Program-made: the position numbers and the translations under genes
The notes under the pieces: model-generated
What the model was told of the DNA's origin: nothing
The model's input: the letters and a program-made list of their open reading frames with translations, nothing else
Databases searched by the model: none
In this document: positions 17,146-31,813 of the stretch, piece by piece
How positions within the stretch are numbered: position 1 is the first letter of the stretch
Layout: the number at the start of each line of letters is the position of its first letter
Assembly (NCBI GenBank): GCA_004298115.1
Contig: SCRJ01000186.1
Coordinates: 1-33,229, forward strand
From: Acidobacteriota bacterium
GTDB taxonomy: Bacteria > Acidobacteriota > Thermoanaerobaculia > Thermoanaerobaculales > Thermoanaerobaculaceae
Reading direction: 5' to 3'
Length of the DNA stretch: 33,229 nucleotides

Positions 17146-17154
17146 AGTCTATCA
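17146..17154 (-). promoter_or_regulatory. Extended -10 promoter (TGATAGACT) for ffh
   Basis: On the minus strand TGA directly precedes TAGACT, giving an extended -10 box about 20 bases upstream of the GTG at 17125. The end of repeat copy A begins 12 bases further upstream. If this is the real promoter, the ATG at 17155 cannot be the start. Confidence 0.45.
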
Positions 17155-17165
17155 TCCCGCCGAGG

Positions 17166-17621
17166 GCGCTGCCGACATCGGACCACTATCCGGGCGGGGG
17201 GTCCCGTCCCGCCTGCGGCGGGACTCCACCGCCCGCCCGGCCGCTCTTGCCCCCCGAACCCCCCGGCGAGCCGCGGCGGAGCCGCGCCTCGCCCGGCGAT
17301 GCCCTTCGACGGCTCGCGTGCTCACGTAGCCTCCGGCCACACTCCGGTCCGACCGCCTTGCCCTCCTAGCCAGGGGCCGGGCATCACACCTTGTTGAGTG
17401 CTCGGCAGCGCTGGTTCGCCGGCCGGGCGAGATGGGTACCCCTGGTCAGGCCGCAGGCGGCAAAGTGTGATCACCGGCCCCTACCACTCTCGGCAGCGCG
17501 GCTACACGCCCCAAGTGACGAGGGTCTGCCTATCGTTTGGATTTTTGTCTTCGAGGGGGGCGCTCGAGGCTGGGCGGCCTGGGGCCGGCGCAGCCGGCTC
17601 GGACCACGGACCACGGACCAC
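17166..17621 (-). repeat. Dispersed repeat family, copy A (with nested insertion)
   Basis: The gap 17155-17715 contains no credible gene. It is filled by a copy, in minus orientation, of a repeat also found at 20742-20906 and 31524-31813. Landmarks on the minus strand are three GGACCAC/GTGGTCC heptads (17601-17621), CCTCGAAGACAAA (about 17545-17558), and CTTGGGGCGTGTAGCCGCGC (17515-17496, identical in all 20 bases to copy C). A hairpin TGTGGCC-GGA-GGCTACG (17341-17325) and the end motif GTGGTCCGATGTCGGCAGCGC without its last base (17186-17167) follow. It carries an inserted 109-bp element and an extra GC-rich hairpin block (17190-17300, stem 17265-17293) absent from the other copies. Confidence 0.75.
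17373..17481. mobile_element. Nested 109-bp inverted-repeat (MITE-like) element
   Basis: The ends are imperfect terminal inverted repeats: GGGGCCGGGCATCACACCTT (17373-17392) and, reversed, GGGGCCGGTGATCACACTTT (17481-17462), matching at 18 of 21 positions including the next base. The block interrupts copy A at a point where copies B and C are continuous. It has no open frame for a transposase, so any movement would need one from elsewhere. The interior holds GGGTACCC. Confidence 0.6.
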
Positions 17622-17715
17622 TGTAGTTCCGGTGGCGGACTGGGCGCGGGAGGCGCAGAATTGAGACCGGACAGGTGCGGCGCGGAGGTACGACGCGCGG
17701 CGGCGGAGGCGGGCG

Positions 17716-18411
17716 ATGGCGATGGACCCGAAGGCGCTGTGGACGATGTCGTACGGGATGTACCTGGTGACGGCGCGCGCCGGGGGGCGCGCCAACGGGC
17801 AGATCGCCAACGCCGTCTTCCAGGTCACGGCCGAACCGCCGCGCCTCGCCATCGCGATCAACAAGGAGAACTTCACCCACGACCTGATCCGCGACGGCGG
17901 GTGGTGCGGCTTTGCCGTGCTCGCCGAGAGCGCGCCGATGGAGTTCATCGGGCTGTTCGGCTTCAAGTCGGGGCGCGACGTGGACAAGCTCGCGCACGCC
18001 ACCGTCCGCGACGGACTGCACGTGCCGCTGGTCGTGGACCACGCCGTCGCGGTCGCCGAGGCGCGGGTGCTGCAGACGACCGATGCCGGCACGCACACGG
18101 TGTTCATCGTCGAGGCCGTCAACGCCGAGGTCGTCTCCGGCGCCGCCCCGCTCACCTACGCCGGCTATCACGCGCGCAAGGGGAAGGCGCCGAAGAACGC
18201 CCCCACGTACCGCGGCGAGACCGAGCCGCCGGCGCCGCCGGCCGCTTCCCCCGCCTCGACCTGGACGTGCGGCGTCTGCGGCTACACGTACGACCCGGAG
18301 GAAGGCGACCCGGCGCACGGCGTCGCGCCCGGCACGCGCTTCGAGGACCTCCCCGACGACTGGGTCTGCCCCGTCTGCGGCGCCCCGAAGGACGCCTTCC
18401 TGCCGGATTAG
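17716..18411 (+). CDS. hrb: Flavin reductase-rubredoxin fusion (high-molecular-weight rubredoxin)
   Basis: 231 residues. Residues 1-165 form a flavin-reductase-like FMN-binding domain ([57 protein letters not shown]). After a Pro/Ala linker near 172-183 comes a rubredoxin with both iron knuckles, CGVCGY and [11 protein letters not shown], separated by the usual DYDPEEGDP-like stretch. Such Hrb proteins pass electrons from NAD(P)H via FMN to partners such as flavodiiron NO/O2 reductases, and act in the cytoplasm. No flavodiiron gene is nearby. GGAGG stands six bases before the ATG. The gene is high-GC, unlike the DUF262-HEPN pair beside it. Confidence 0.88.
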
Positions 18412-20741: not shown

Positions 20742-20906
20742 ATTCCTGGCGCGTAGCCGCCTTGTTTCGGCCCGCGGCAGCGGCGCCGCCGAGAGTGGGC
20801 CAGCCGCAAGGCGCCCGAGGCGGACGCGGCGGAGTGTGGCCGGAGGCCACATGAGCACGCGAGCCGCCGAAGGGCAACGCCGCGGATGGTCCGCTATCGG
20901 CGGCGC
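20742..20906 (+). repeat. Dispersed repeat family, copy B
   Basis: A plus-orientation copy that aligns with copies A and C. Landmarks are GGCGCGTAGCCGCC at the start, GCCGAGAGTGG (shared with A), the hairpin TGTGGCC-GGA-GGCCACA (20835-20851), GAGCACGCGAGCCG (shared with A), and the end motif ATGGTCCGCTATCGGCGGCG (20886-20905). It lacks the heptads and the CGAAGAC section. Its end lies three bases from the stop codon of the Lon-like gene. Copies A and B are inverted relative to each other and enclose hrb-HEPN-DUF262. Confidence 0.7.
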
Positions 20907-31523: not shown

Positions 31524-31813
31524 GTGGTCCGTGGCCGCGGGTCCGTGGTCAGTAGGGGTCCGTGGCCAGTGGTCCGTGGCCAGTGGTCCGAAACGGCCGC
31601 TCCGGCCGCAGGCCGCGCCGCCTCTCGTGCCTCCCTCGAAGACAAACGCTCCACCGAAGGCAGGGCCCGGCAACTTGGGGCGTGTAGCCGCGCCGCCGCC
31701 GTTGGGCCAGATGCAAGGAAGGCGAGGCGGCCGGACCGGAGCGTAGCCGGAGGCTACGTGAGGATCCGAGCCGCCGCAGCCTGACGCCGCAGATGGTCCG
31801 ACGCCGGCGGTGC
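31524..31813 (+). repeat. Dispersed repeat family, copy C, with heptanucleotide array
   Basis: This copy fills the 312-base gap between the synthase and gpsA; no gene is seen there. It begins with a heptad array (31524-31589) built from GTGGTCC, GTGGCCA and variants, about eight 7-base units plus one 10-base unit. Then come CCTCGAAGACAAA (31634-31646), CTTGGGGCGTGTAGCCGCGC (31674-31693), the hairpin CGTAGCC-GGA-GGCTACG (31742-31758), and the end motif ATGGTCCGACGCCGGCGGTG (31793-31812). The end lies three bases from the gpsA stop codon, as copy B does to the Lon-like gene. Confidence 0.75.

What the first reader, a model, noticed from the sequence alone, without database searches (positions are those of the whole stretch)
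17373..17481. 109-bp MITE-like element nested in repeat copy A
Terminal inverted repeats of 21 bases match at 18 positions. The block sits at a point where copies B and C are continuous, so it is an insertion younger than the repeat family. It encodes nothing and would depend on an outside transposase.
Basis: seen in the sequence. Interest (0 to 1): 0.5.

Follow-up and report, generated by a model that had tools for sequence, protein, structure and literature searches.

The report
Optional hairpin module in intergenic repeats
The short inverted-repeat block is real and recurs, but it does not behave like a free-moving mini-transposon: it is an optional hairpin found almost only at one fixed spot inside a larger family of hairpin repeats, most of which sit just behind genes, in one group of uncultured Acidobacteria.

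Summary
The block is real: 111 bp at 17372-17482, 22-bp ends pairing at 19 of 22. Alone it is within chance reach; recurrence establishes it. The genome has 16 full copies plus a fragment. I found 33 distinct blocks in six genome records; 33 of 33 sit at the same junction of the same host repeat. One weak exception: a hairpin with related ends in G006 (decayed in G004) lies outside any recognised host repeat. No IS with these ends was seen in nine genomes. The host is a ~124-bp palindrome, usually just after a stop codon. At orthologous sites in two sister species 22 of 22 readable copies are short, as are 11 of 11 in outgroups: the block is a derived, in-place gain. Host arms at orthologous sites are no more alike than at unrelated sites: positions persist, interiors turn over. 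Best reading: a composite palindromic repeat, like BOX or Correia elements in build, with an optional hairpin probably copied between host repeats by ectopic gene conversion. Independent MITE: not supported. Transfer mechanism and function are inference.

The parts
17165..17184 (+). left outer arm (cap) of the host hairpin repeat, GGCGCTGCCGACATCGGACC
   Evidence: pairs with the right cap; its first 11 bases are shared with both sister species at the orthologous site
17185..17294 (+). left inserted module X (nested GC-rich hairpins), absent from both sister species at this site; boundaries approximate
   Evidence: alignment; association with the block
17295..17320 (+). left inner arm of host hairpin (approximate)
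17321..17346 (+). host core hairpin CTCACGTAGCC...CTCCG
   Evidence: 40 cores in the genome
17347..17370 (+). right inner arm of host hairpin
17372..17482 (+). the optional block (consensus 112 bp)
17372..17393 (+). left terminal inverted repeat of the block
17461..17482 (-). right terminal inverted repeat of the block
17483..17499 (+). right outer arm (cap) of the host repeat, ACCACTCTCGGCAGCGC
17500..17600 (+). trailing repeat modules (GGCTACACGCCCCAAG..., GC-rich hairpin), often but not always following the host repeat
20783..20906 (-). copy C: short-form host repeat without the block
31690..31813 (-). copy B: short-form host repeat without the block

Best explanation
The 112-bp block is an optional hairpin module of a composite palindromic intergenic repeat family in one uncultured Acidobacteriota genus. 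Shown: the host repeat is a ~124-bp palindrome with covarying arms, usually right after a stop codon and often at the same place in several species. All 33 blocks found lie at one junction in its 3' arm, where the short form has 8 nt instead. The loci carrying it mostly differ between species. Long is the derived state at six loci with outgroup data. Inferred: the block entered the host repeat before the block-bearing species split and spread from copy to copy by homologous copying of the repeat interior (ectopic gene conversion) rather than by its own transposition. Also inferred: on a transcript or single-stranded DNA it folds as an independent side branch, so it can be present or absent without disturbing the host hairpin. 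No regulatory role was tested.
For: 33 of 33 distinct blocks at the identical junction. 22 of 22 readable orthologous host copies in two sisters are short, and 11 of 11 readable copies in outgroup species (ffh tree). Outer ends at the window site are shared by three species with the same site-specific variants (GGCGCTGCCGA/TCGGCAGCGC) while the interior differs. Orthologous arm identity 0.70-0.75 (G000 against sisters, 21 pairs) equals non-orthologous 0.72-0.74 (173 pairs), although long flanking alignments are 83-94% identical. Half-switched copies exist: L015 keeps the sister G003's left arm (1.0) but has another right arm (0.68), L011 the reverse (0.55/0.96). Long copies have poorer arm pairing, 13.4 against 15.2 pairs, p 0.011, and left module X co-occurs with the block, odds ratio 11, p 1.3e-4. 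No IS ends. The fold of the window copy closes the outer stem with the block as its own branch.
Against: No conversion event was caught directly and no reads were examined. A 110-bp hairpin of the same layout with related ends (15 of 20 comparable end positions) stands in G006, with a decayed copy at what looks like the orthologous site in G004, outside any host repeat I could recognise; if it is homologous, the block or its ancestor has lived outside the host repeat. Three loci (L004 against G007, L014 against both sisters, L012 against G007 where readable) differ mainly by the block, which also fits targeted insertion. Genomes are fragmented MAGs with N gaps inside some of these hairpins. 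Related copies are not independent data points in the tests.
Confidence: 0.6

Rival explanations
1. A miniature transposon, site-specific now or mobile in the past: the block is or was moved as a unit by a recombinase or transposase in trans, with the host palindrome as its docking site, as IS elements that insert specifically into REP palindromes do.
For: Fixed junction in 33 of 33; 22-bp ends that co-vary (3 of 22 pairs with changes on both sides); three loci where arms are nearly unchanged apart from the block; a possible distant free-standing relative in G006 and, decayed, G004. Site-specific IS insertion into REP palindromes is published (PMC1525189, abstract read).
Against: No autonomous partner among the single-end hits in nine genomes; 8 host nt replaced and no duplication; arms and left module often change together with the block. 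Of possible enzymes only Y1_Tnp (RAYT-type) genes were searched for: two in the genome, with no similarity to the repeat in the stretches around them.
Confidence: 0.25
2. The long form is ancestral and the short form arises repeatedly by loss of the block (by deletion or by conversion towards short).
For: At loci where only the three closest species can be read, gain and loss cannot be told apart; the divergent G002 and G005 copies show the block at the same junction, so it is older than the three-species split.
Against: Outgroup species are short at L007, L008, L010, L011, L015 and L016; the short form's junction bases complement its cap with coordinated changes, which a simple deletion would not restore.
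Confidence: 0.08
3. An assembly artefact: short-read MAG assemblies have mixed interiors of similar repeats.
For: Fragmented MAGs with N gaps in some hairpins.
Against: Copies differ by many substitutions, lie inside contigs with matching flanks, and the same block and junction recur in six genome records.
Confidence: 0.06

Closest known systems
BOX elements (Streptococcus pneumoniae)
   Same: Composite intergenic palindromic repeat with an optional internal module (boxB) predicted to fold apart from the flanking modules, so it may be absent or repeated (PMC3049150, passages).
   Different: Sequence relation was not tested; here the optional module is a single TIR-bounded hairpin, not seen in tandem in the copies read, sits off-centre in the 3' arm, and stands in place of 8 nt.
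Correia elements / NEMIS / CREE (Neisseria)
   Same: Two length classes of one palindromic repeat differing by a fixed internal segment of about 50 bp (PMC2229807, section read); most locations conserved between two gonococcal strains (PMC2649163, passages).
   Different: There the long form carries an IHF site and insertions are often at TA targets; here the internal segment is itself an inverted-repeat hairpin, and no duplication was seen for the block.
ERIC / IRU (Enterobacteria)
   Same: ~127-bp palindromic intergenic repeat, transcribed with neighbouring genes and affecting stability of the upstream transcript (PMC2229807, section read).
   Different: Different sequence and phylum; internal insertions of ERIC are recalled, not seen in a call.
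REP / BIME palindromes and IS elements that target them
   Same: Palindromic extragenic repeats that serve as precise targets for other elements (PMC1525189, abstract).
   Different: Host repeat is ~124 bp, not 20-40 bp (REP size from the abstract start of PMC3733652, listing); the block has no known autonomous relative; the RAYT genes present are not beside the repeat.

Membership tests
MITE (the block on its own) | short (<500 bp) with TIRs of about 4-30 bp | tested here: met
   111-112 bp, 22-bp TIRs
MITE (the block on its own) | flanking target-site duplication in young copies | tested here: not met
   Flanks GC+n | n+CCA in the 33 blocks with no direct repeat (in L074 the right end is one base short, so its flank reads CCA at once); 8 nt of the short form are missing. 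Old events could have lost a duplication
MITE (the block on its own) | copies inserted at different genomic targets | tested here: not met
   33 of 33 distinct blocks at one host-repeat junction. Exception of uncertain homology: one hairpin site in G006, decayed in G004
MITE (the block on its own) | ends shared with an IS that could supply transposase | tested here: not met
   No widely spaced pairs of ends in the assemblies; lone hits are the fragment (L017), two 2-mismatch hits to the 18-nt pattern and six 3-mismatch hits in G001, G006 and G008, the six without a partner within the stretches held. Plasmids and unassembled DNA not excluded
MITE (the block on its own) | typically AT-rich | tested here: not met
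   69.4% G+C against 70.8% in the window; a tendency, not strictly defining
MITE (the host repeat) | palindromic repeat with TIRs dispersed in intergenic sites | tested here: met
   40 cores in the genome; outer ends GCGCCGCCGAtAGcGGaCC / GGcCCaCTcTCGGCGGCGC
MITE (the host repeat) | target-site duplication at clean empty sites | tested here: inconclusive
   Species without a full copy keep an outer-stem or cap remnant, or have different intergenic DNA; no duplication could be read
BOX-like composite repeat | constant outer modules with an optional inner module | tested here: met
   Long and short forms share caps, arms and core
BOX elements proper | sequence homology to boxA/boxB/boxC | not tested
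   Not compared
REP associated with RAYT (REPIN) | repeat copies flank a Y1 transposase gene | tested here: not met
   Two Y1_Tnp genes found, with GGTACCTGGTACC-like palindromes beside them and no repeat copy in the 3.2-3.3-kb stretches (longest BLAST match 15 nt)
Known structured RNA | match to an Rfam family | tested here: not met
   Only a tRNA in the window at gathering scores; none in 17150-17720 at E up to 5

The most novel reading that the evidence does not exclude
Fixed-position hairpins behind genes act as docking sites whose interiors are overwritten by a targeted cassette exchange (not general homologous recombination), with the 112-bp hairpin as one exchangeable cassette and the left module X as another; complementary arms move together, so whole folded units are swapped while the outer stem stays put.
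Probability: 0.12. Interest if true: 0.7.

Novelty: new variant of a known kind. Interest (0 to 1): 0.42.

Why it matters
It is a natural series in which the position of a palindromic intergenic repeat is conserved between species but its interior is not. Presence and absence of the same module at orthologous sites make it possible to ask directly how bacterial hairpin repeats are rewritten: by gene conversion, by template switching between arms, or by a dedicated enzyme. Papers on template switching (PMC8794818 and others, search listing with abstract starts only) suggest that arm complementarity can be kept by mutation rather than selection; this family could test that. The block itself is otherwise a modest, lineage-restricted curiosity.

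Tried and rejected
Independent MITE: not supported because every one of 33 blocks shares one junction and no IS partner was found. REPIN/RAYT: two Y1_Tnp genes exist but no repeat copy is beside them. Known structured RNA: no Rfam hit. Viral carriage: the exact TIR-pair pattern gave 0 hits in viral contigs. Wide distribution: the exact TIR-pair pattern gave 12 contigs in the collection of 84,980 species genomes, 11 titled Acidobacteria and one titled Anaeromyxobacteraceae (L127). L127 carries what I take to be the upp 3' end (gene name from memory) and the repeat as in this genus, so I take its title to be a misnomer. The covariance model, with stricter filters, reached E 0.1 in 7 of 59 genomes, own included, all in the genus; strong in G000, G002, G003 and G007, weaker in G005 (6e-8), and marginal in G006 (0.014) and G004 (0.087).

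Checked late, and against my reading: I first took the marginal G006 hit for chance. It is a 110-bp hairpin with ends CGGTGCCAGnnATGnCATTnTG, outside any host repeat recognisable at 3 substitutions. A pattern made from its ends gave it again, plus a one-mismatch single end at what looks like the orthologous site in G004 with a decayed second end, and otherwise only three-mismatch hits at about control level. Its interior does not align clearly with the block. I cannot say whether it is a relative; I lowered the best explanation from 0.66 to 0.60 and raised the transposon rival from 0.20 to 0.25 for it. The separate G004 model hit (L066) was not pursued.

Chance control: the TIR alone is not decisive. 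That this family is not in print rests only, none of whose listings described it. A regular expression found no cores and one matched only 2 of 11 loci; cap spacing and printed sequences were used instead, for 24 of the 30 loci fetched.

Full report
What was claimed. A 109-bp MITE-like insertion with 21-base inverted ends at 17373-17481, nested in a repeat copy, needing an outside transposase.

The observation. It is there. The natural ends are 17372 and 17482 (111 bp; AGGGGCCGGGCATCACACCTTG and CAAAGTGTGATCACCGGCCCCT; 19 of 22 positions pair). By itself this is not far above chance: 5 of 20 Markov resamplings of the window held at least one inverted repeat of equal quality and spacing. What secures it is recurrence. 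The genome holding the window (3.97 Mb MAG, 203 contigs) has 16 full copies and one fragment; the 16 align at 91% mean column identity, the window copy lacking one base.

Where the copies are. The best matches to block plus flanks include the flanks, not the block alone. The surrounding repeat is itself a palindrome of about 124 bp: outer arms GCGCCGCCGATAGCGGACC and GGCCCACTCTCGGCGGCGC, inner arms, and a core hairpin. The core pattern occurs 40 times in the genome with up to 3 mismatches allowed (control 0). I read 38 distinct ones with flanks: 16 carry the block and 22 do not; 21 of the 22 have eight bases at the junction instead (ATCTGGCC, GGCTGGCC, ATCCGGCC and similar), and L117 is deleted there. 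In the short form these bases pair with the left cap with coordinated changes; 14 of 42 predicted pairs of 13 short forms show changes on both sides. In the loci fetched I found 33 distinct blocks: 16 in G000, 6 in G003, 7 in G007, 2 in G002, 1 in G005 and 1 in contig L127. Two of them (G002 C28, G005) carry CGACAC instead of TCACAC in both ends. 33 of 33 lie at the same host junction. For 32 of them (G002 C28 left out), 3 of 22 end pairs show changes on both sides; 16 of 500 shuffles reach that, none reaches the observed covariation score or percentage paired, and for the number of pair types 219 of 500 do; few independent events underlie these changes.

No autonomous partner seen. In the own genome an 18-nt end pattern with up to two mismatches gave the paired ends, the fragment and two lone two-mismatch hits. 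In nine genomes of the genus a 22-nt end pattern gave, at up to two mismatches, only ends that form pairs 112 bp apart and the fragment (two partner ends, in G003 C1 and G005, have three mismatches). Six further three-mismatch hits, in G001, G006 and G008, stand alone in the stretches held. Two Y1 transposase genes exist in the genome without the repeat beside them. The exact end-pair pattern occurs in 12 contigs of a collection of 84,980 species genomes, 11 titled Acidobacteria bacterium, and in no viral contig. Among 59 genomes, own included, the covariance model reached E 0.1 only within the genus.

An exception of uncertain meaning. The marginal model hit in G006 (32.4 bits, E 0.014) is a 110-bp hairpin with ends CGGTGCCAGnnATGnCATTnTG, which match the block's ends at 15 of 20 comparable positions (my count from the sequences), with the same two unpaired inner positions. 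G004 has a decayed version at what looks like the same site. No host core or cap is recognisable in the G006 stretch. Other hits to a pattern made from these ends have three mismatches and are about as many as the control. It may be a distant free-standing relative, or chance; if a relative, the block once lived elsewhere.

Orthologous sites. For the window locus, the ffh/flavin-reductase spacer of two sister species (G003, G007) holds the short form, with the same unusual outer ends GGCGCTGCCGA/TCGGCAGCGC as the window copy but a different interior (two Ns in G003); in the spacers of G001, G002, G005 and G008 no such repeat is seen. For the other 15 long loci I searched 180-bp flanks in G003 and G007. 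Two loci (L006, L013) gave no ortholog there; at L016 both species lack the repeat; one ortholog (L148) has Ns in place of most of the hairpin; in L141 part of the hairpin is N but the 3' junction reads short. Over the 13 loci with a readable copy, window included, 22 of 22 copies are short (11 in each species). An ffh tree puts G003 and G007 together next to G000, with G002/G005 and then the others outside. In these outgroups 11 of 11 readable copies, at six loci, are short (24 of 30 fetched loci examined; the other 13 have no element, a cap or truncated remnant, run off the contig, or were not resolved). Long is therefore derived at those six. The reverse survey of 11 long copies from G003, G007 and G002 found short orthologs for L131 and L124 in G003 and for L129 in G003 and G000; a short 3' junction beside Ns for L125 in G003; one long copy shared by G003 and G007 (L133/L185); outer-stem remnants in G000 for L125 and L133; and absent, partial, unreadable or unresolved repeats for the rest. 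The site that I take to be upp is long in G007 and in contig L127, short in G000 and G003.

Interior turnover. Between orthologous copies the arms are on average 0.70-0.75 identical (G000 against sisters, 21 pairs), the same as between unrelated loci (0.72 and 0.74, 173 pairs); G003 against G007 is slightly higher (0.80 and 0.78, 8 pairs). Long flanking alignments at 14 loci are 83-94% identical. Arms of one copy nevertheless complement each other: 15.2 pairs in 48 short copies against 10.1 when arms of short copies are swapped at random; 28 long copies have 13.4 (p 0.011), and a module in the left arm goes with the block (14 of 28 long, 4 of 48 short; p 1.3e-4) (distinct copies of G000, G003 and G007 only). 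These copies are related, so the p values are indicative. At some loci only one arm differs (L015, L011 against G003), at others arms are nearly the same and mainly the block differs (L004 against G007, L014). Some outgroup copies at L011 (G001, G004) and L016 (G001) carry a left module of this kind without the block. Taken together, interiors are rewritten in place, and the block is one of the pieces. Ectopic gene conversion is the simplest process that gives a constant junction, mixed arms and hitch-hiking of the left module; a site-specific mobile block is the main rival.

Position and possible role. By my own codon-usage gene calls, the upstream gene runs in the direction of the repeat in 19 of 20 short copies and 10 of 14 long ones for which a gene could be called, of 38; p 4e-5 for 29 of 34, but 0.18 for the long copies alone. 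In most of these the repeat starts within about 30 bases of the stop codon. The window copy is an exception, lying between divergent genes. The fold of the window copy closes the outer stem and puts the block on its own branch (z -1.95); a short copy folds as one long hairpin (z -2.8). A role at mRNA 3' ends, as published for ERIC, is possible but untested.

Known relatives in kind. Optional inner segments in composite palindromic repeats are known: boxB in BOX elements and the ~50-bp inner segment of Correia elements. This family resembles them in build; sequence relation was not tested. I file it as a new variant of that kind, not as a MITE, since target duplication, dispersed targets and an IS partner were each tested and not met for the block, with the exception noted (features from PMC10969869, section 2.1 read).

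Noticed in passing
17185-17294: A second inserted module (X, nested GC-rich hairpins with TTGCCCCCCGAnCCCCCC...GCGAGCCGCGGCGGAGCCGCG) sits at a fixed place in the left arm and goes with the block; some outgroup copies (L227, L231, L239) have a similar module without the block.
   Followed up: partly
L065 (G006) 1501-1610 and L260 (G004) from 1501: A 110-bp hairpin with ends CGGTGCCAGnnATGnCATTnTG, similar in layout to the block but outside a recognised host repeat; decayed in G004.
   Followed up: partly
17601-17623 and many loci (e.g. L127): Tandem GGACCAC heptamers (GGACCACGGACCAC...) trail many copies of the repeat and vary in number between loci.
   Followed up: no
L136 and L137: Two Y1_Tnp (RAYT-like) genes have GGTACCTGGTACC-type palindromes beside them, perhaps a separate REP/RAYT system in this genome.
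   Followed up: partly
L127 (DAIEMM010000189.1): A contig titled Anaeromyxobacteraceae carries a gene end and the repeat as in this acidobacterial genus; the title is probably wrong or the contig misbinned.
   Followed up: partly
L008, L024, L178, L196: Another palindromic repeat (CCCGCGAACGCGGGGATCCAGG...TGGGTTCCCGC...GCGGGAACGAC, with variants) recurs near several copies.
   Followed up: no
L175 (G000) against L125: A minimal form keeps only the outer stem (GGCGCCGCCG...CGGCGGCGCC) where another species has the long form.
   Followed up: partly
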